Shown here: positions 1-7,077 of the stretch, piece after piece
Position numbering within the stretch: position 1 is the stretch's first letter
How the letters are laid out: the number at the start of each line of letters is the position of its first letter
NCBI GenBank assembly: GCA_902803365.1
Contig: CADCPU010000450.1
Location: forward strand, 1-7,117
DNA length: 7,117 nucleotides
Source of the DNA: Oscillospiraceae bacterium
Lineage (GTDB): Bacteria > Bacillota_A > Clostridia > Saccharofermentanales > Saccharofermentanaceae
Direction of reading: 5' to 3'
The notes under the pieces: model-generated
Database searches by the model: none
Told to the model about the DNA's origin: nothing
What the model saw: the letters and a program-made list of their open reading frames with translations, nothing else
Program-made: the position numbers and the translations under genes

Positions 1-714
1 AAGCTTGGTAAGTCCCGGGGCCTTATTGGTAAATGTCACTTTGCCGTCCGGGGTAAGGCTTATCTTTAAGTCGCCGCCGCTGTACTTAAGCGCATTGCTC
101 ATGAGATTTGAGAAGATCCTGTCGACCTGCTGACGGTTGACGTTCCTTATAACCTGCTCTTCCGTAATATCGACTTCAGGCTCGATGCCTTTCTGAGTGA
201 GAGCGGCATAGTGATTCATGAGAGAATCTTCGAGGACCTGATTGATCATGACATTCTCTTTTGGTGCTTCACCGTCGGAAGACAGGATCACCGAGTATTC
301 GAAAAGCTCTTCAGTTAATTTCTTCATGTACTGCGCTCGGTCTTCGATGATATCGAGCGTCTTATTGACCTCAGGCGACTTATCCTCTTTTTTCAAGAGC
401 GCAAGATGACCTAAGATCGCCGTCAAGGGCGTTCTCAGGTCATGTGAGATATTCGTTATTGCCATCTTCATCTCCATATCACCTTCACTATAGCGGTGAT
501 AAGCACTGCGGACATTTACGAGTGTATTGTTGAGCTCGGCTGCGAGGCGCATCATGTCTTTGTCACGCGACTTAATGCCGATTATCGCGTTTGTATCGGT
601 ACTCGTTATCTCCTTATATTTCTCGGCTATCTCAGCTGCAGATCTTTTCATTACTATTATCTTCATGAGCAGCAGAAGGATTATTACTATACAGATACAA
701 AGTGCGATGAGCAT
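1..714 (-). CDS. Sensor histidine kinase, 3' end cut by the window edge
   Basis: Membrane-bound sensor kinase, probably the partner of the response regulator at 3204-3872. I translated 238 codons from the ATG at 712-714; the frame is still open at position 1. Residues 2 to about 22 form one hydrophobic helix. A short linker follows, then the dimerisation/phosphoacceptor segment with motif ISHDLRTPLTAI, phosphorylated His at residue 91, and the start of the ATPase domain with an N-box (FSNLMSNALKYS, Asn about 207). The G boxes must lie beyond the window. There is no extracellular sensing domain, so the signal is probably sensed in the membrane or relayed by the transporter (inference). AGGAG at 725-729 lies 10 nt before the ATG and 1 nt after the stop of the upstream permease, so the gene is the last visible member of the transporter operon. 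The kinase identity is secure; its ligand is unknown. Confidence 0.93.
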   Translation of the reverse strand, partial: MLIALCICIVIILLLLMKIIVMKRSAAEIAEKYKEITSTDTNAIIGIKSRDKDMMRLAAELNNTLVNVRSAYHRYSEGDMEMKMAITNISHDLRTPLTAILGHLALLKKEDKSPEVNKTLDIIEDRAQYMKKLTEELFEYSVILSSDGEAPKENVMINQVLEDSLMNHYAALTQKGIEPEVDITEEQVIRNVNRQQVDRIFSNLMSNALKYSGGDLKISLTPDGKVTFTNKAPGLTKL

Positions 715-729
715 TTATTGTTTTCTCCT

Positions 730-1449
730 TTAAACAAGTGCGCGCTTATTGATCTTGAACTTGCCGATCAATGTTACGACGATCAACAACGCTATGGAGA
801 TCGCGATCCTTACATAGAACGGAACGCTGTCGTCCATGTTCATTATACCGAACCACTGGCCGAGCGGGAAAAGATTCTCAGCAACCGCAGTTACGCTGTT
901 ACCTGAAAGCATATTGATGCTGAATGCCGTGACGCCCGAGAAGTAAGAGACTATAAAGAACAGGATGCTGATGATCGAAGAGAGGACCATCTTCTTGATC
1001 CTCAAGCTGAACCAAACGATGATCGCTGTGTAAAAGAGATTTAACATAAGGATCATTGCAGAGTTTTGTATAAATCCGATACCGATAGGAGCACCGCCGC
1101 TAACCAGTCCGATGATCCCTGCGGCAAGCCATACAACAACCATGATCGTCGTGCCGAGAAGTGCGGAGATAAGATCAGCCATATAGACCGTCGACTGCTT
1201 TCTTCCCGCGATGACCTTGTTTCTCATCGCGCCGTCCTTATACTCACAGCCGAGGAAGAACGGGATAAAGAAAGATGAGAAAGCCGCGATACCGAGAGAT
1301 GCAGTTCTGTGCCAATACTCGGCTACGTCAGGATCTGCGATCTTGAGCCTTACGACAAAGATCGTGATCAGGAATGCCAGGATAAGTCCCGGGATAAAGA
1401 AGATGTGCTTGAACATCCTCATCATGTTTGCCTTTACTAATGTATTCAT
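730..1449 (-). CDS. ABC-2 type permease, second subunit (BcrB/LanE-LanG-like)
   Basis: A 239-residue integral membrane protein with about six hydrophobic segments (roughly residues 15-34, 51-66, 92-116, 128-148, 155-178 and 211-230). It probably forms the membrane channel of an ABC transporter together with the permease encoded just upstream. The first cytoplasmic loop has the pattern GCEYKDGAMRNKVIAG (residues 67-82), a hallmark of small ABC-2 permeases linked to bacitracin or lantibiotic resistance. The same pattern occurs in the upstream permease, and the N-termini also align (MNTLVKANMMRMFKHIFF against MNNLIASDMRRMLKSMFF), so the two look like old paralogues. The ATG at 1447-1449 is 1 nt after the TGA of the upstream gene. 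Its probable ribosome binding site, AAAGGA at 1461-1466, lies inside that gene, so translation is probably coupled. The family assignment is good; the exported substrate is inferred from context only. Confidence 0.9.
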   Translation of the reverse strand: MNTLVKANMMRMFKHIFFIPGLILAFLITIFVVRLKIADPDVAEYWHRTASLGIAAFSSFFIPFFLGCEYKDGAMRNKVIAGRKQSTVYMADLISALLGTTIMVVVWLAAGIIGLVSGGAPIGIGFIQNSAMILMLNLFYTAIIVWFSLRIKKMVLSSIISILFFIVSYFSGVTAFSINMLSGNSVTAVAENLFPLGQWFGIMNMDDSVPFYVRIAISIALLIVVTLIGKFKINKRALV

Positions 1450-1450
1450 A

Positions 1451-2215
1451 TCATTTCATATCCTTTCGAGTAAAAACGCCGCCGATCAAAAGTGCGATAA
1501 CGAGTGTGGCGGCAATGCCGATAATGTAAAAGCGAGGCTCTTTAAGAACTGCATTCATCGGATAAGAGAACGGCACATATCTGTCGATGAACTGATATAC
1601 TGCAAGCTTTGTTCCGCTGATCCTAATGATACCATCCTCCGGATAGAGTTTGCTCATTACATCACTGCCAAGGAAGATCATCATTACAGATACAAGTCCG
1701 CCTGCAACATATGCCCCGTTGGAGTTCGAGAAAAGGTATGTCAGCGCAACCATGAATATTGCCAATACTATATTGGCGCATGTACATACAGCCATAAACT
1801 TGAGCATATAGACTATATCCGTAAAGCCCTCACCCAGAGCAAGTCCAAGGATCTGCGATATTCCAAACGCAACCAGTTGCACAACCACCACAACAGGTAT
1901 CATACAGACTGAAGACGAGAGAAAACAGGAGTATCTCGAGTTGCCTGATATGATCTTATTTCTTATGCAACCTGTTACCAATTCAGTTCCGACAAAGAGT
2001 GCTATGAACACTGCAGGAAGCAGGAATGAATATCTGCCTTCAAAAGTCGCAAACAATGCGTCAGCGTATACAGGCGACTCTATATCGAGAAGTCTTACGA
2101 CAAGTGTTCCGAACAGATCCACAAGTATCATAACGATCGGGATCGCGACTGCGAAGATATAGAAGAACATGCTCTTGAGCATCCTTCTCATATCTGAAGC
2201 AATGAGATTATTCAC
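1451..2215 (-). CDS. ABC-2 type permease, first subunit (BcrB/LanE-LanG-like), GTG start
   Basis: A 254-residue membrane protein with about six hydrophobic segments (near 15-40, 62-77, 100-120, 137-162, 168-184 and 229-247). The loop GTELVTGCIRNKIISG (residues 76-91) marks the small ABC-2 permease family. The gene can be read in frame as far upstream as 2317, but that would overlap the ATPase gene by more than 100 nt and add a hydrophilic, unrelated leader. I chose the GTG at 2213-2215 because a near-perfect GGAGGTGA (2221-2228) sits 8 nt upstream (counted from GGAGG) and because the resulting N-terminus aligns with that of the next permease. This start overlaps the end of the ATPase gene (stop 2208-2210) by 8 nt, which is typical of translational coupling. 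It probably pairs with the downstream permease as a heterodimer, since both genes are intact and adjacent. Confidence 0.9.
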   Translation of the reverse strand: MNNLIASDMRRMLKSMFFYIFAVAIPIVMILVDLFGTLVVRLLDIESPVYADALFATFEGRYSFLLPAVFIALFVGTELVTGCIRNKIISGNSRYSCFLSSSVCMIPVVVVVQLVAFGISQILGLALGEGFTDIVYMLKFMAVCTCANIVLAIFMVALTYLFSNSNGAYVAGGLVSVMMIFLGSDVMSKLYPEDGIIRISGTKLAVYQFIDRYVPFSYPMNAVLKEPRFYIIGIAATLVIALLIGGVFTRKDMK

Positions 2216-3122
2216 TTCTCTCACCTCCGATAAGGGACATGAAGAATCCTTCGAGTTCCTCGTCATGCTCTTCAGCGGAGACGATATTGCAGCCATCCTT
2301 CGAGCATTCGATCGCAAGTTCCGTGAAGTTTACTTCGGAGAAGATGTCGGCTGTCTTATCGTCAATTACCGTATAGTCGAAGCCGAGTCTTTCCATCGTT
2401 CTTGCGAGAGCCTTGGTATCGTTCACCTTAAGTCTCGTGCTCTTTCTGCTGCTCTTCTCGAGTTCTTCGGAAGTCATCTCCTTGACGATCCTTCCCTTAT
2501 CGATAAAGCCGTAATGTGTTGCAAGTCTTGAGAGTTCATCAAGGATGTGGCTCGAGATCAGGATCGTCACACCGTTTTCGCGATTGAGCTTCAAGATGAG
2601 TTCTCGCATCTCGATGATGCCCTGAGGATCAAGTCCATTGATCGGTTCGTCGAGGATCAGGAAGTCAGGCTTGCCGCAAAGTGCGACTGCGATGCCGAGT
2701 CTCTGTCTCATACCGAGTGAGAAGTTCCTTACCTTCTTTCTGCCCGTGTCACCGAGTCCGACAAGTTCCAGGAGTTCGTTGATGCCGTCATATGAAGGAA
2801 GACCGAGATTCAAGTACTGCTGCTTCATATTGTCGACTGCATTGAGGTCACCGAAGAGTGCCGGAGTCTCGACTATCGCGCCCATCCTCTTTCTTGCCTT
2901 GAGGATGTCCTTGCTGTCGCTTGAGATACCGAAGATCTCGTATTCACCTGAAGTTGCTTTCTGAAGGCCCGTGATGACCCTGATGAGCGTCGTCTTACCT
3001 GCGCCGTTCTTGCCTACGAATCCGTAGATCGCACCGCGCGGGATAGTCATATTCATTTCATTAAGAGCCGTAAAGCCCGGATATCTTTTTGTAATTCCCT
3101 TTACCTTAAGTACGTTTTCCAT
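2208..3122 (-). CDS. ABC transporter ATP-binding protein, BcrA/LanF-like
   Basis: Cytoplasmic ATPase of 304 residues that should power the two permeases encoded immediately downstream. Visible motifs: Walker A GKNGAGKTT (37-45), ABC signature FSLGMRQR (134-141), Walker B LILDEP (155-160) with catalytic Glu159, D-loop GLDP, and switch His192. The position normally held by the Q-loop glutamine reads GAIVETP, with Glu85. This E-loop is characteristic of LanF/BcrA-type lantibiotic and bacitracin resistance ATPases. A C-terminal extension of about 90 residues follows the core domain, as in that family. The frame stays open to 3185, but the ATG at 3120-3122 is preferred: AAGGAG (3132-3137) lies 9 nt upstream and MENVLKVKGITKRY is a normal family N-terminus. 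The class is certain; export or immunity against a peptide antibiotic is inferred from the E-loop, the paired permeases and the flanking two-component genes. Confidence 0.94.
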   Translation of the reverse strand: MENVLKVKGITKRYPGFTALNEMNMTIPRGAIYGFVGKNGAGKTTLIRVITGLQKATSGEYEIFGISSDSKDILKARKRMGAIVETPALFGDLNAVDNMKQQYLNLGLPSYDGINELLELVGLGDTGRKKVRNFSLGMRQRLGIAVALCGKPDFLILDEPINGLDPQGIIEMRELILKLNRENGVTILISSHILDELSRLATHYGFIDKGRIVKEMTSEELEKSSRKSTRLKVNDTKALARTMERLGFDYTVIDDKTADIFSEVNFTELAIECSKDGCNIVSAEEHDEELEGFFMSLIGGERSE

Positions 3123-3152
3123 TTTCGTTCGCTCCTTTTTTATTCTGAGAAG

Positions 3153-3182
3153 ATTAAACCATACGAATGTCAGGAATTCGTA
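3153..3182 (-). promoter_or_regulatory. Probable regulated promoter and 21-bp dyad upstream of the ABC operon
   Basis: The 81-nt gap between the regulator gene and the ATPase gene contains a perfect inverted repeat, TACGAAT at 3162-3168 and ATTCGTA at 3176-3182, with a 7-bp spacer. Directly downstream on the minus strand is an extended -10-like element, TGg followed by TTTAAT (3153-3161). The matching -35 position (about 3176-3181) is poor and lies in one arm of the dyad. This layout suits a promoter that needs an activator or is blocked by a repressor. The response regulator encoded next door is the obvious candidate (inference); OmpR-family proteins more often bind direct repeats, so another factor is possible. 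Confidence 0.45.
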
Positions 3183-3203
3183 CAAGGAAAAGTCAAGACA
3201 TCG

Positions 3204-3872
3204 TCAAGATTTGAATTTAAATCCGATGCCGTATATTGCTTCGATGTGTTCCGCACCATCAAGCGTCTGAAGCTTCTTCCTTATATTACTTACATGTTGT
3301 TTAAGAGAGCGATCCGTACAATCAGGAGTATCCTCGCTTATACGCTCAAGGATCGTATTGCGGCCGAGAGGTCTTCCCGCGTTCTCCATTAGGAGTTTTA
3401 ATATCGCGCATTCAGTCCTTGTAAACGTGACGGAATTACCGCCTGCTGATGCTTCCATGAGATCCTGATCGAGCGTGATGCCGCCTGCAGTGAGAGTCTT
3501 TACTTCCTGTGCGCGCCTTGATTCGCTCATGCGAAGCTGGACCTGGATCCTCGCGAGGAGTTCTTCAACTTCAAACGGCTTCGTAATGTAATCAGCCGCA
3601 CCTCCGAGAAGCAGGTCGACCTTGTTCTTAACGTCTATCTTGGCGCTTACGACGATGACAGGAATATCCCGGATAAGTGGCAGGACTTCTTCACCCGTAA
3701 GACCCGGGAGCATAAGGTCCAGAAGCACCAGATCGGGCGTACTTGTTTTAAGCAAAAGAAGAGCTTCAGTACCCGAATAAGCCTTTGAAACTTCATAGCC
3801 TTCGGATACCAAAGCTTTCTCTACCATGTCATTGATATATGTGTCGTCGTCAACGATAAGAATATGTTTCAT
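3204..3872 (-). CDS. OmpR/PhoB-family response regulator
   Basis: A 222-residue DNA-binding regulator. The receiver domain (about 1-118) has the acidic pocket D8-D9, phosphoacceptor D52 in LVLLDLMLPG, S76 at the Thr/Ser switch position and K98-P99 in YITKPF, so it should be phosphorylatable. The C-terminal part (about 127-222) is a winged helix with recognition-helix region DRSLKQHVSNIRKKL and the terminal hairpin YGIGFKFK. The ATG at 3870-3872 follows GGAG (3880-3883) by 7 nt. It begins 38 nt after the copA stop and ends 81 nt before the ATPase start. The likely sensor partner is the kinase at 1-714, on the other side of the transporter genes. A split arrangement like this is seen in lantibiotic-immunity and Cpr-like modules. 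Likely targets are the ABC operon and perhaps its own promoter. Confidence 0.94.
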   Translation of the reverse strand: MKHILIVDDDTYINDMVEKALVSEGYEVSKAYSGTEALLLLKTSTPDLVLLDLMLPGLTGEEVLPLIRDIPVIVVSAKIDVKNKVDLLLGGAADYITKPFEVEELLARIQVQLRMSESRRAQEVKTLTAGGITLDQDLMEASAGGNSVTFTRTECAILKLLMENAGRPLGRNTILERISEDTPDCTDRSLKQHVSNIRKKLQTLDGAEHIEAIYGIGFKFKS

Positions 3873-3910: not shown

Positions 3911-4120
3911 TCAAACTGTGCCGATATAGCTAAAGTCCTTATCCTCGATGACTGCCTTTACCTTCGCCTCATCGAACTCACCCGACAGCTCGATCTCACA
4001 GATATTCTCGTCGTGGTTCGGCTGAGCATATGAGATAAAATCCAACGCCTCGAGCGCCTTCTTAACAGTTGCTTCGCAGTGTCCGCACATCATACCTTCG
4101 ATCTTCAATGTCTTTTTCAT
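3911..4120 (-). CDS. copZ: CopZ-like copper chaperone, internal in-frame start within copA
   Basis: A 69-residue reading frame, in frame with and forming the last part of copA. It starts MKKTLKIEGMMCGHCEATVK and has the exact length and layout of a free-standing CopZ/Atx1-like chaperone, with the Cu(I)-binding CxxC at residues 12-15. Such proteins hand Cu(I) to CopA and CsoR in the cytoplasm. The ATG (4118-4120) is preceded by AGGAG (4128-4132) at the ideal distance of 7 nt. In the copA frame this ribosome site is spelled by Glu-Arg-Arg-Asn-Asn with adjacent AGG-AGA arginine codons. Separate synthesis of CopZ in addition to the fused form is therefore likely but unproven. The second half is less typical than most CopZ proteins (QPNHDENICEIEL, with an extra Cys41). 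Confidence 0.6.
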   Translation of the reverse strand: MKKTLKIEGMMCGHCEATVKKALEALDFISYAQPNHDENICEIELSGEFDEAKVKAVIEDKDFSYIGTV

Positions 4121-6391
4121 GTTATTTCTCCTCTCGATCTTGATCTCTATATCATCAGGGACATTGCCCTTGATCTTCTTATCTTTGTCCGCGTCGTGCA
4201 TGTTAAACAGGTTGAGCCTTAATGCGTTCATGCAGACCGTAAAGCTCGACAGGCTCATCGCCGCCGCACCTATCATCGGATTCATCCTCCAAACAAAAAG
4301 TCCTGCCGCGAGCGGAATGCAAATGAGGTTATAGAAGAACGCCCAGAAAAGATTCTCATGGATGTTCTTGACAGTCTTCCTGCTGAGCCTTACCGCAGCT
4401 GCAACATCCATCAGTGAACTGTTCATGAGAACGACATCCGCGCTGTCTATCGCAACATCCGTGCCCGCTCCGATCGCGATTCCTATATCTGCTCTCGTCA
4501 GCGCCGGTGCATCATTTATACCGTCGCCTACCATTATGACCTTGCCGTATTCCTGAAGCTTTTTAACGACGTCTTCCTTGCCGTCCGGCATAACTCCCGC
4601 GATGACCTTATCAACTCCCGCAGCCTTACCGACCGCGTTAGCCGTGCGCTCGTTATCACCCGTCAGCATGAAGACTTTAAGTCCCTGCTTCTTAAGCTGC
4701 AAGATCGCTGAAGCTGAGTCTTCTTTTATCTCATCTGCGACCGCGATGATGCCCAGAAGTCGTCCGTCTTCTTCAAAGAACAGCGGCGTCTTGCCTTCAC
4801 CTGCGAGCCTGTCTGCTTCGCTGCTGAGATTGCCGGTTCCAATGAACTTCGCGTTGCCGCCTCTGATCTTCTTTCCGTCGATCACGGCCTCAAGTCCGCT
4901 ACCGGAAGTGATCTTAAAATCAGTCGTCTCAAGCGCTTCGATATACTCTTCTTCCGCCTTCTTAACTATCGCACCCGCGAGTGGATGCTCGCTCTTTTTC
5001 TCGAGCGAAAAAGCCTTCGTAAGCAGTTCTTTTTCCGTAACTTCTTCGGTCGGTATTATATCCGTTAGTACAGGGTTTCCCGATGTAATTGTTCCCGTCT
5101 TATCGAGCACAACGATCTGTGCTTTACCCAAAAGTTCGAGCGCCTCACTCGTCTTAAAGAGTATCCCGTTTTTTGCACCCATTCCGTTACCTACCATAAT
5201 GGCAACAGGTGTCGCAAGTCCGAGTGCACAAGGACATGAGATAACAAGAACTGATATTCCGCGCTCAAGTGCAAAGCTGAATTCCCTTCCGATCAAGAGC
5301 CAAACTATCGTAACTACCGTAGCGATCCCGATTACCGCGGGCACGAAAACACCAGAGACCTTATCCGCAATTCTTGCGATCGGTGCCTTTGTCGCAGAAG
5401 CATCAGATACCATCTTGATGATCTTCGATATCGCAGTATCCTTTCCGACCTGCGTCGCCCTGCACTTAAGGTAGCCTGACTGATTGATCGTCGCAGCATT
5501 CACGCTGTCACCTGCCGTCTTATCAGCAGGTACGGACTCACCCGTAAGAGCAGACTCATTAACCGCACTGTCGCCTTCAATTACCACGCCGTCAACAGGT
5601 ATGCTGTCTCCCGGCCTTACGACAAAGATATCGCCCACCTTAACGTCCTCTGCGCGTATCTCACGCTCGACTCCGTCCGTAACAATGCGGGCTGTTTTCG
5701 GAGCCAGCTTCATAAGGCCCTTAAGTGCATCCGTCGTCCTGCCCTTAGACATCGCTTCGAGCAGCTTGCCCACCGTAATGAGTGCAGGGATCATTGCCGC
5801 TGATTCAAAATACAGTTCATTATGATAGATATCCATCAGTTCCGCATCCGCAGCACCATACATCTTGAAGATGACATATATGCTCCAAACGAACGAGACT
5901 GATGACCCCATTGCGACAAGCGTATCCATATTCGGAGCAAGATGTCTCAACGAGCCGAATCCGTTCTTAAAGAACTTGAAGTTTATGCTCATAACGATCA
6001 GCGCCAGCACCATCTGAACATACGCAAGCGCTATGTGGTTATTCTCAAAATATTCAGGGATCGGCAATCCGAGCATATTATGCCCCATCGTTATATACAT
6101 CAATATAAGCAGGAACACGACTGACAGTATGAGACGCTTTTTAAGCTTTGGAGTCTCTGTATCCTTCAGCTGATCTTCCGTCTGCTGACCGTCGCTCTTG
6201 ACCGCCGCGCCGTAACCTGCGGCCACCACAGCCTTGATAACATCTTCGCTGCTGCATGTTCCTTCAACGCCCATGGAATTTGTAAGCAGGCTCACCGATA
6301 CCGAAGTAACACCCGGCACCTTCGAGACCGCCTTCTCAACTCGTGCCTGACATGCGGCACAGCTCATTCCCGTAACGTCATATTGTTCCAT
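3911..6391 (-). CDS. copA: Cu(I)-exporting P1B-1 ATPase CopA with C-terminal CopZ-like domain
   Basis: Membrane pump of 826 residues that uses ATP to expel Cu(I) from the cytoplasm. In order: an N-terminal heavy-metal-associated domain (GMSCAAC, Cys11/Cys14); paired transmembrane helices from about 86; the actuator motif TGES (283-286); the metal-site CPC (386-388); DKTGT with phosphorylated Asp430; SEHP (467-470); TGDN (577-580); GDGIND (622-627); and the final helices with YN (687-688) and MSLSS (712-716). CPC, YN and MxxSS together are the Cu(I) subgroup signature. After a hydrophilic linker (about 731-757) comes a second metal-binding domain with CGHC (769-772). The ATG at 6389-6391 is 14 nt after the csoR stop. 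Its ribosome site is weak (around AGCAGG), so translation may depend on csoR. Most CopA proteins keep all metal-binding domains at the N-terminus, so the C-terminal one is notable. Confidence 0.97.
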   Translation of the reverse strand: MEQYDVTGMSCAACQARVEKAVSKVPGVTSVSVSLLTNSMGVEGTCSSEDVIKAVVAAGYGAAVKSDGQQTEDQLKDTETPKLKKRLILSVVFLLILMYITMGHNMLGLPIPEYFENNHIALAYVQMVLALIVMSINFKFFKNGFGSLRHLAPNMDTLVAMGSSVSFVWSIYVIFKMYGAADAELMDIYHNELYFESAAMIPALITVGKLLEAMSKGRTTDALKGLMKLAPKTARIVTDGVEREIRAEDVKVGDIFVVRPGDSIPVDGVVIEGDSAVNESALTGESVPADKTAGDSVNAATINQSGYLKCRATQVGKDTAISKIIKMVSDASATKAPIARIADKVSGVFVPAVIGIATVVTIVWLLIGREFSFALERGISVLVISCPCALGLATPVAIMVGNGMGAKNGILFKTSEALELLGKAQIVVLDKTGTITSGNPVLTDIIPTEEVTEKELLTKAFSLEKKSEHPLAGAIVKKAEEEYIEALETTDFKITSGSGLEAVIDGKKIRGGNAKFIGTGNLSSEADRLAGEGKTPLFFEEDGRLLGIIAVADEIKEDSASAILQLKKQGLKVFMLTGDNERTANAVGKAAGVDKVIAGVMPDGKEDVVKKLQEYGKVIMVGDGINDAPALTRADIGIAIGAGTDVAIDSADVVLMNSSLMDVAAAVRLSRKTVKNIHENLFWAFFYNLICIPLAAGLFVWRMNPMIGAAAMSLSSFTVCMNALRLNLFNMHDADKDKKIKGNVPDDIEIKIERRNNMKKTLKIEGMMCGHCEATVKKALEALDFISYAQPNHDENICEIELSGEFDEAKVKAVIEDKDFSYIGTV

Positions 6392-6405: not shown

Positions 6406-6711
6406 CTATTTCATCAGCTTCTGAATAAGTCTGGTGAACTCGTCTATAGCCTCATCCTTACCCGCACGGATATCATCCGATACGCAAGTCCTTATATGGC
6501 ACGCCAAAAGCTCCTTGTTAAAGCTGTTGAGCGCCGCCGTGACCGCAGAGATCTGCACAAGGATATCAGGACAGTACGCATCATCTTCCACCATCTTCTC
6601 GATCCCTCTGATCTGTCCCTCGGCCCTCTTGAGGCGCTTAAGAAGAGCTGCCTTCTCCTCATCGGAACGCAGCTTTTTTCTGCCGCTGCAACAAGAACAA
6701 TTGTCGCTCAT
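6406..6711 (-). CDS. csoR: Copper-sensing transcriptional repressor CsoR
   Basis: All-helical repressor of 101 residues that should bind the operator at 6739-6755 without copper and release it when Cu(I) binds. The Cu(I) ligands Cys47, His72 and Cys76 have exactly the family spacing (Cys, 25 residues to His, 4 to Cys). The region LKRLKRAEGQIRGIEKMVEDDAYC is the standard first helix of the CsoR/RcnR family. This combination of ligands favours a copper sensor over the nickel, formaldehyde or persulfide relatives. A short N-terminal extension holds three more cysteines (5, 7 and 8, CSCC). AGGAGG (6720-6725) lies 8 nt before the ATG at 6709-6711. It is the first gene of the copper operon, so it is probably autoregulated together with copA. 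Confidence 0.95.
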   Translation of the reverse strand: MSDNCSCCSGRKKLRSDEEKAALLKRLKRAEGQIRGIEKMVEDDAYCPDILVQISAVTAALNSFNKELLACHIRTCVSDDIRAGKDEAIDEFTRLIQKLMK

Positions 6712-6738: not shown

Positions 6739-6755
6739 ATACCCCCTGGGGGTAT
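6739..6755. promoter_or_regulatory. CsoR operator
   Basis: The 17-bp perfect palindrome ATACCCCCTGGGGGTAT, with one central base, matches the GC-rich core flanked by TA that is known for CsoR operators. It lies 28 nt upstream of the csoR start codon. It overlaps an AT-rich TATAAA-like element on the minus strand (6734-6739), and it lies just downstream of the start point expected from the TTGACA promoter. In either case bound CsoR would block transcription of csoR-copA. Confidence 0.88.
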
Positions 6756-6767
6756 CTCTTTTTCATG

Positions 6768-6796
6768 AGAGTACTCCCTTTTCCGTGAGTTGTCAA
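6768..6796 (-). promoter_or_regulatory. Probable sigma-A promoter of csoR-copA
   Basis: On the minus strand a consensus -35 TTGACA (6791-6796) is followed after exactly 17 bp by TACTCT (6768-6773), which keeps the three most conserved -10 bases (T1, A2, T6). Transcription would begin near 6761, placing the CsoR operator at about +6 to +22. An alternative -10, TATAAA at 6734-6739, overlaps the operator directly but lacks a recognisable -35. Confidence 0.55.
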
Positions 6797-6803
6797 CGTG
6801 CGG

Positions 6804-6822
6804 ATTAACCATAAAGGTTAAT
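6804..6822. promoter_or_regulatory. 19-bp dyad upstream of the csoR promoter, possible regulator site
   Basis: A perfect inverted repeat, ATTAACC and GGTTAAT separated by ATAAA, lies 7 bp upstream of the TTGACA element and is centred near -52 relative to the predicted start. It differs in sequence from both the CsoR operator and the palindrome array. No T-run follows it on the minus strand and only a very short stem could form, so a DNA-binding site is more likely than a terminator. The protein that would bind it is unknown. Confidence 0.4.
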
Positions 6823-6860: not shown

Positions 6861-7050
6861 AAAACTTACATATCATATGTAAGTTTTGGAGACGAGATTT
6901 CAAAAGTTACATATTATAGGTAAGATTTTCAGGTCATCGGTAGAAAAACTACATATTATATGTAAGTTTTAAGGAAGGAAATTTCAAAGTTACATATTAT
7001 ATGTAAGTTTTTCAGGTCATCGGCAGAAAAACTACATATTATATGTAAAA
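6861..7050. repeat. Tandem array of five phased 17-bp palindromes (83-bp repeat unit)
   Basis: Five copies of a palindromic core close to TTACATATTATATGTAA lie at 6866-6882, 6907-6923, 6949-6965, 6990-7006 and 7032-7048. Their starts are 41, 42, 41 and 42 bp apart, close to four DNA turns each. The first copy has the central base C and is the centre of a perfect 27-bp palindrome (6861-6887, 13-bp arms). The second has one substitution (T to G at 6919). The third and fifth begin with C in place of T. A larger unit of exactly 83 bp holds two palindromes: 6907-6965 and 6990-7048 differ at only 3 of 59 positions. The array contains 50 G or C in 190 bases (about 26%), much lower than the genes. 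No coding frame fits. It could be a multi-operator array, an iteron- or partition-like site, or a small repeated element; the sequence does not decide. Confidence 0.9.
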
Positions 7051-7051
7051 C

Positions 7052-7077
7052 AGATAACAAAGCCTGCTTGGTTATCT
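7052..7077. terminator. Terminator-like hairpin beside the array
   Basis: AGATAAC (7052-7058) pairs with GTTATCT (7071-7077). After one A-G mismatch the pairing continues with AAG/CTT around a four-base loop. T-runs of four follow on both strands (7077-7080 on plus, 7047-7050 read on minus), so it could act in either direction. The stem is AT-rich and the T-runs are short, so termination would be weak at best. Confidence 0.4.

What the first reader, a model, noticed from the sequence alone, without database searches (positions are those of the whole stretch)
6861..7050. Five helically phased palindromes upstream of the copper operon
Seen directly: five near-identical 17-bp palindromes with start-to-start distances of 41, 42, 41 and 42 bp. 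About 10.5 bp per turn makes each step four turns, so all sites face the same side of the helix. This strongly suggests cooperative binding of a dimeric protein, with DNA bending or wrapping, as in iteron, partition or multi-operator control regions. None of the regulators in the window has an expected site of this form: CsoR uses the GC-rich operator at 6739, and OmpR-type proteins usually use direct repeats. The array ends about 100 bp upstream of the csoR start point, so it may add a second layer of control to copper export, serve a gene to the right, or be a DNA-maintenance site unrelated to copper.
Basis: partly seen in the sequence, partly recalled or inferred. Interest (0 to 1): 0.8.

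Follow-up and report, generated by a model that had tools for sequence, protein, structure and literature searches.

The report
Dispersed helix-phased palindrome arrays in Clostridia
The five evenly spaced DNA palindromes next to a copper operon look like one example of a kind of DNA-binding array that its uncultured bacterial relatives carry at many unrelated places, with different recognition words but similar spacing, so they are probably not a copper switch.

Summary
In detail: five 17-bp palindromes (TTACATATnATATGTAA) at 6866, 6907, 6949, 6990 and 7032, steps 41/42/41/42, far above chance. The steps are partly one fact: the stretch is an 83-bp unit repeated about 2.3 times. The copper reading is not supported: the closest relative, G003, keeps the csoR promoter and CsoR box without an array. 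The motif array was found in no collection searched, but the architecture was. G003 and G057 carry 8-1-8 palindromes at mostly 41-43 bp with other words at several loci each. Five other family members have 51.5-53-bp arrays. In G121 half-sites are 90% identical between arrays, spacers 44%, linkers 32%. Some arrays lie between convergent genes. G121 and G115 share two array positions filled with different words. Best reading: a bent or wrapped nucleoprotein site read by an unidentified lineage-specific DNA-binding protein, sopC-like in geometry and REP-like in dispersal. The host genome, the right-hand gene and the reader protein are unknown.

The parts
6866..6882 (.). palindrome 1 TTACATATCATATGTAA; extends to a perfect 13-1-13 inverted repeat, 6861-6887
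   Evidence: (I4)
6907..6923 (.). palindrome 2 TTACATATTATAGGTAA (one arm mismatch)
6949..6965 (.). palindrome 3 CTACATATTATATGTAA (outermost pair broken)
6990..7006 (.). palindrome 4 TTACATATTATATGTAA (consensus)
7032..7048 (.). palindrome 5 CTACATATTATATGTAA (outermost pair broken)
6861..7026 (.). two tandem 83-bp units (6861-6943 and 6944-7026, 82% identical); a partial third begins at 7027
   Evidence: (D2)
7052..7077. hairpin with short T-rich stretches on both sides, terminator-like by eye, at the outer edge of the array; not flagged by the consensus scan
6768..6796 (-). csoR promoter by eye: TTGACA (6796-6791), 17 bp, TACTCT (6773-6768); conserved in L003, which lacks the array; the consensus scan reported no promoter
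6739..6755 (.). CsoR-type box ATACCCCCTGGGGGTAT
6406..6711 (-). csoR (Trns_repr_metal)
3911..6391 (-). copper-type P-ATPase with two HMA domain matches

Best explanation
The array is five binding sites, all on one face of the helix, for an unidentified dimeric DNA-binding protein of this lineage that recognises TTACATAT/ATATGTAA half-sites and bends or wraps the DNA into a compact nucleoprotein complex. It is one member of a class of dispersed intergenic arrays in its bacterial family, in which words differ between genomes (and sometimes between loci) while the lattice is about 4 turns (window, G003, G057) or about 5 turns (G121, G115, G120, G011, G108). It most likely serves chromosome organisation, as a scattered architectural or centromere-like site, rather than control of the copper operon. 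Shown: the geometry, the words, dispersal in relatives, conserved words with unrelated linkers in G121, and a csoR promoter conserved without the array. Inferred: that a protein reads it, that the DNA is wrapped, the chromosomal role, and that the window's host has further copies.
For: Same 8-1-8 palindrome and about 42-bp lattice in the closest relatives with other words. The words are largely genome-specific: the G003 word gives 35 forward hits in G003 against 6 for the reversed-pattern control; the G057 word gives 44 in G057 (control 4) but 7, 3 and 3 in G003, G121 and G115 (controls 5, 5, 2); the G121 word pair gives 23, 0 and 0 in G121, G120 and G115. G121: 53-bp register at 8 fetched loci, one of them (L130) more degenerate. 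Over 44 units of 7 of those arrays, halves are 0.90 identical between arrays, spacers 0.44, linkers 0.32, so the word looks held in trans and the arrays are not copies of one insert. A/T blocks at positions 9-12, 18-21 and 27-30 of G121 units, strongest at a 9.5-10 bp period, suggest bending. G121 spacers do not pair across the dyad significantly beyond the permuted control (116 of 2000 permutations reach the value). By my reading of mechanical ORF calls, 5 of 18 arrays lie between convergent genes. The promoter is conserved without the array.
Against: No reader protein was identified, and the host genome and right-hand neighbour are missing. One genome can hold several words (G115: three on one contig), so one reader per genome is too simple. 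In G003 many sites keep only one consensus half. In the A/T test all eight periods tried (8-13 bp) beat the shuffles in G121, so blocks are shown but one helical period is not singled out; in G003 the strongest is 8 bp; in the window the best is p=0.037 at 9 bp, with 0.30 at 10.5 bp. Both strands of the window array fold well as RNA (z -7.1 and -6.6), so a transcribed role is not excluded. Arrays come and go between G121 and G115, odd for an essential site. The G121 arrays were chosen by an exact-word search, which favours conserved halves.
Confidence: 0.5

Rival explanations
1. REP/BIME-like repeats: transcribed hairpins or miniature mobile elements that settle after gene ends, acting on RNA stability, termination or supercoiling.
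For: Intergenic, often next to terminator-like hairpins by eye, between co-directional or convergent genes, as reported for REPs (PMC3733652 abstract and passages). Presence/absence between G121 and G115. Strong RNA folding of the window array. Y1_Tnp matches in G003 and G120. Organised tandem REP arrays with fixed distances are on record (PMC3116915 passages).
Against: No Y1_Tnp match in G121, G115 or G057, which have arrays (genomes may be incomplete). G121 arrays share the words, not flanks or linkers. A fixed period near whole helical turns is not expected of hairpins. Spacer pairing is not significant. Many G003 sites are not full palindromes.
Confidence: 0.25
2. Local operator array: a second regulator acts on csoR-copA or on the gene to the right through these five sites.
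For: Lies just upstream of the csoR promoter; G121, G120 and G115 also have arrays upstream of csoR.
Against: The best-scoring CsoR relatives G003 and G057 have none at csoR; of 30 csoR loci L086-L115 only L089 (G120) and L105 (G121) pass the register test, with L094 (G115) by eye. The same words lie at other genes in G121, G003 and G057. Arrays between convergent genes have no obvious promoter to control. The array starts 65-70 bp upstream of the -35 box.
Confidence: 0.12
3. Partition or replication site of a plasmid or integrative element that carries the copper operon.
For: Geometry matches sopC: twelve 43-bp repeats each with a 16-bp inverted repeat (PMC9178275 passages).
Against: No match in the plasmid and phage collections or, as an exact-core array, in viral contigs. 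G003 carries several arrays on a contig with genes that I recognise by eye as rpsL, fusA and tuf. No par genes among the seven window proteins scanned.
Confidence: 0.08
4. Neutral minisatellite made by tandem duplication.
For: 83-bp duplication in the window; a 126-bp higher-order repeat in the G003 array at C6:48090; within-array spacers more alike than between arrays in G121 (0.59 against 0.44).
Against: Words 90% identical between separate G121 loci while linkers are 32%; 53-bp register across loci; no in-register cluster in 2.1 Mb of Markov sequence.
Confidence: 0.05

Closest known systems
F-plasmid sopC centromere (twelve 43-bp repeats, each with a 16-bp inverted repeat bound by SopB)
   Same: Short palindrome of 16-17 bp repeated about every four helical turns (PMC9178275 passages).
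   Different: sopC is one site downstream of sopAB on a plasmid; here linkers differ, relatives have many loci, words differ between genomes, and there is a second lattice near 53 bp. Protein binding is not shown here.
REP/BIME/REPIN repeats
   Same: Dispersed intergenic palindromes, some species-specific, often downstream of genes, sometimes in tandem arrays (PMC3733652 abstract and passages; PMC3116915 passages).
   Different: Lattice near 4 or 5 turns; between G121 loci only the 8-bp halves are well conserved; roughly ten loci were found per genome in G121, G003 and G057; no Y1_Tnp match in three of five genomes.
CRISPR arrays
   Same: Short repeats at a constant period with variable spacers.
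   Different: Conserved part is 8 or 17 bp, arrays have about 4-12 units at many loci, and spacers within a G121 array resemble each other.
CsoR operators
   Same: Palindromic sites in the same intergenic region.
   Different: CsoR boxes are the GC-rich ATACCCC...GGGGTAT sites, separate from the array and conserved without it.

Membership tests
sopC-type (type Ia) centromere | Tandem units of about 43 bp, each with a 16-17 bp inverted repeat | tested here: met
   17-bp palindromes at 41/42 bp, though the linkers are of two kinds
sopC-type (type Ia) centromere | Adjacent parA/parB genes | tested here: inconclusive
   None among the seven window proteins scanned; the contig ends 69 bp past the last site
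sopC-type (type Ia) centromere | One site per replicon | tested here: not met
   In relatives only: 8 loci fetched in G121, several in G003 and G057; untestable in the host
REP/BIME | Extragenic palindromes dispersed in the genome | tested here: met
   In relatives; untestable in the host
REP/BIME | Cognate RAYT (Y1_Tnp) in the genome | tested here: inconclusive
   Matches in 2 of 5 array-bearing genomes (G003, G120), none in G121, G115, G057; assemblies may be incomplete
REP/BIME | GTAG or CGTC tag at the foot of the palindrome | not tested
   Feature taken from the abstract of PMC3733652; no systematic test made
CRISPR array | Repeat of 24-48 bp with unrelated spacers | tested here: not met
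   Window repeat family of 22 nt with 17-bp sites; G121 halves 8 bp, spacers 0.59 identical within arrays; size range from PMC3733652 passage
Copper (CsoR) operator | GC-rich inverted repeat beside the csoR promoter, conserved in relatives | tested here: not met
   True for 6739-6755, not for the array

The most novel reading that the evidence does not exclude
A bacterial family carries a chromosome-wide system in which the lattice (about 4 or 5 helical turns, about 4-12 units, often 6) is conserved but the recognition word is replaced from species to species, so that orthologous arrays in two related genomes carry different words. A fast-evolving DNA-binding protein, or a set of paralogues, would have to change together with its sites.
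Probability: 0.35. Interest if true: 0.85.

Novelty: new variant of a known kind. Interest (0 to 1): 0.66.

Why it matters
If right, the finding uncovers a class of bacterial chromosomal site defined by geometry rather than sequence, which ordinary motif or homology searches miss. Word replacement at orthologous arrays would give a bacterial model for coevolution of a DNA-binding protein with its dispersed sites, and a testable route to an unknown chromosome-organising protein in uncultured Clostridia.

Tried and rejected
Motif array in IMG/VR (exact cores), plasmids, phages, 84,980 species genomes (exact cores), 115 family genomes at one mismatch (5 genomes with one isolated site each) and 188 order genomes with looser cores: no array. 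A looser viral scan gave 6 loci; L117 and L120 had three or more sites, at 20-21 bp in low-complexity DNA, and I set them aside as probably convergent. Rfam at gathering thresholds found nothing in the window.

Detector settings varied: 8-mers, 5 or more; both 8-mers, 5 or more, and 7-mers, 6 or more; 7-mers, 6 or more; 7-mers, 5 or more. Rows set aside: L078 (an 86-bp tandem repeat with two palindromes, scored 6 of 6 in register at 42.5 bp, from another lineage; it could be a further case), L018, L072, L117, L120 and L247 (not in register), L098 (in register only for CsoR boxes), and L179, L187 and L233 (by eye). L094 (G115 csoR locus) was read by eye because an insertion interrupts its lattice. 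G077 (83 kb) had no array.

Considered and dropped: origin or terminus marks (dnaA matches lie on contigs other than the fetched array contigs, with no in-register cluster in the 3.5-kb stretches around them; no dnaA match in G003; GC skew does not flip across the array regions of the two contigs examined); shared chromosomal position between G003 and G057 or between G003:C6 and G121:C18/G115:C16. Clustering is notable: five arrays within 79.6 kb of 487.9 kb in G121, P=0.003 under uniform placement, computed after seeing the cluster. Hairpin covariation in G121 spacers: not significant.

Literature: searches listed papers, none of which I recognised from title and abstract start as describing such arrays (10 of 37 listed, 18 of 18, 6 of 6, 10 of 4,458); searches returned no paper. 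Papers seen: PMC9178275 passages, PMC3116915 passages, PMC3733652 abstract, outline and passages.

Full report
What is there. The window ends with five 17-bp palindromes, consensus TTACATATnATATGTAA, at 6866, 6907, 6949, 6990 and 7032, spaced 41/42/41/42 bp. Chance is excluded: 10 strand matches against a shuffle mean of 0.01. The stretch is an 83-bp unit repeated 2.3 times at 82% identity, so the four steps are not independent. The sites are 88-100% alike, while linkers of the two kinds are little above the shuffled value (40-44% against 36% +/- 6%), which fits older units of about 41 bp whose palindromes were kept. At the outer edge lies a terminator-like hairpin, 7052-7077 (not flagged by the scan), and the contig ends at 7117.

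The copper operon does not seem to need it. By eye the csoR promoter is TTGACA (6796-6791), 17 bp, TACTCT (6773-6768), with the CsoR box at 6739-6755; the consensus scan reported no promoter. In L003 (G003; CsoR 83% identical) the -35, the 17-bp spacing and the box are the same and the -10 differs by one base, with no array upstream. L087, L092 and L097 show the same layout by eye.

Where the host belongs. No genome is held for the window. A permease hit at 53% is labelled Saccharofermentans sp. by its source. The best-scoring CsoR relatives among the 115 genomes of the G003 family are G003 (83%) and G057 (82%); a fragment in G007 is 83% over 80 residues.

The motif is private, the architecture is not. 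The motif array was not found in 84,980 species genomes (exact cores), viral contigs, plasmids, phages, 115 family genomes at one mismatch or 188 order genomes with a looser core. A de novo search for clustered inverted words changed the picture. In G003, 41 stretches (about 0.81 Mb; L138, L144-L163, L224-L243) were examined, and the arrays of this class found there lay on contig C6: GTAACCCTnAGGGTTAC, with many sites keeping only one consensus half, on a 42-bp lattice at C6:8981, 15905, about 35402 and 48090, and at about 23694 interleaved with a second palindrome. A whole-genome search of G003 found 35 forward sites at up to 3 mismatches against 6 for the control, also on contigs such as C44, C57 and C75. 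In G057 the word is TCCAACCTnAGGTTGGA at mostly 41-43 bp or multiples, 44 sites against 4. Both share the 8-1-8 half-site layout and the roughly four-turn step with the window.

Other family members use about five turns. G121: ATAAGATC-N22-GATCTTAT-N15, 53-bp period, at 8 fetched loci, mostly 6 or 7 units, with a longer array and a variant word (ATAAGTTC) at C4. G115: TGGGACTA at two loci, GATATAA and AGTCGTA at two others on one contig. G120: CTGCCGTA at about 51.5-52 bp, and TTGGATAA mostly at 53 bp. G011: GATCCTA, 10 of 10 in register at 53 bp. G108: AAATCCA, 7 of 7 at 53 bp, in 200 kb; G077: none in 83 kb. The detector gave no hit in 0.70 Mb and one hit, not in register, in 2.10 Mb of Markov sequence. 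Of 30 csoR loci (L086-L115, short stretches) two arrays pass the register test, L089 and L105, and L094 was read by eye; most csoR loci of the family therefore lack one.

Why a trans-acting reader. In G121 (44 units of 7 arrays; the eighth, at C18:359k, is offset and more degenerate and was left out, as were later units at C4) half-sites are 0.90 identical between arrays, the 22-bp spacers 0.44 and the 15-bp linkers 0.32. These arrays entered because they held exact words, which biases the halves upward. Flanks show no shared insert boundary by eye. Spacers do not pair across the dyad significantly beyond the within-array permuted control (116 of 2000 permutations reach the observed value for Watson-Crick pairs, 202 of 2000 with G-U). 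A/T blocks about 9 bp apart mark G121 units; all eight periods tried (8-13 bp) beat 1000 shuffles, with most power at 9.5-10 bp. In G003 periods of 8-10.5 bp are significant (p 0.022 or less), strongest at 8 bp; in the window the best is p=0.037 at 9 bp and 10.5 bp is not significant. I read this as bent or wrapped DNA; it is an inference.

Why not local operators. Reading mechanical ORF calls by eye, 5 of 18 arrays lie between convergent genes, 11 between co-directional and 2 between divergent ones; for two of them (L129, L136) I read a neighbour against the mechanical ORF choice. G121 and G115, with neighbouring proteins mostly 60-99% identical, share two array positions with different words: csoR, and a locus at G121:C18:379869 and G115:C16:269892. 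Of the other loci compared, three G121 arrays have no array at the G115 counterpart and two G115 arrays none at the G121 counterpart, by eye and as far as synteny allows. So positions are partly kept, words change, and arrays come and go.

Comparison. Geometry is closest to F sopC, twelve 43-bp repeats each with a 16-bp inverted repeat (PMC9178275 passages). Dispersal is closest to REP repeats (PMC3733652 abstract and passages; PMC3116915 passages), but Y1_Tnp was not found in G121, G115 or G057, while G003 and G120 have it. It may work like a multi-site nucleoprotein array; membership in either family is not shown.

Limits. The host genome, the right-hand gene and the reader protein are unknown. 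That the window's host carries further arrays is inferred from G003 and G057. The relatives are unnamed in these searches and may be incomplete assemblies. Only parts of G003, G057, G115, G120, G121, G077 and G108 were scanned de novo.

Noticed in passing
6804-6822: Inverted repeat ATTAACC-ATAAA-GGTTAAT between the csoR -35 box and the array, possibly another operator.
   Followed up: no
L239 3694-3990 (G003:C6 about 23694): A second palindrome, close to ATTTCACGAAACGTGAAAT, interleaved with GTAACC sites on the same 42-bp lattice.
   Followed up: no
L094, L099, L101, L105, L108, L197: AAGTGCTTTTCG / CGAAAAGCAC-type words recur in intergenic regions of this family, also inside array spacers.
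   Followed up: no
L120 2193-2650: Viral contig region packed with TTACAT/ATGTAA words, partly at about 21-bp steps, including two copies of the window's palindrome; looks convergent.
   Followed up: partly
L078 5770-5971: 86-bp tandem repeat containing two different palindromes in a genome titled Lachnospiraceae, upstream of its copA; scored in register at 42.5 bp.
   Followed up: no
G057:C7, G003:C6, G121:C18:345-424 kb: Arrays cluster regionally: four clusters and a single site within 33 kb in G057, six within 48 kb in G003, five within 80 kb in G121.
   Followed up: partly
1-3872: Behind copA on the same strand lie a response regulator, an ABC ATPase, two proteins without a Pfam match that look like permeases, and a histidine kinase cut by the window edge.
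   Followed up: partly
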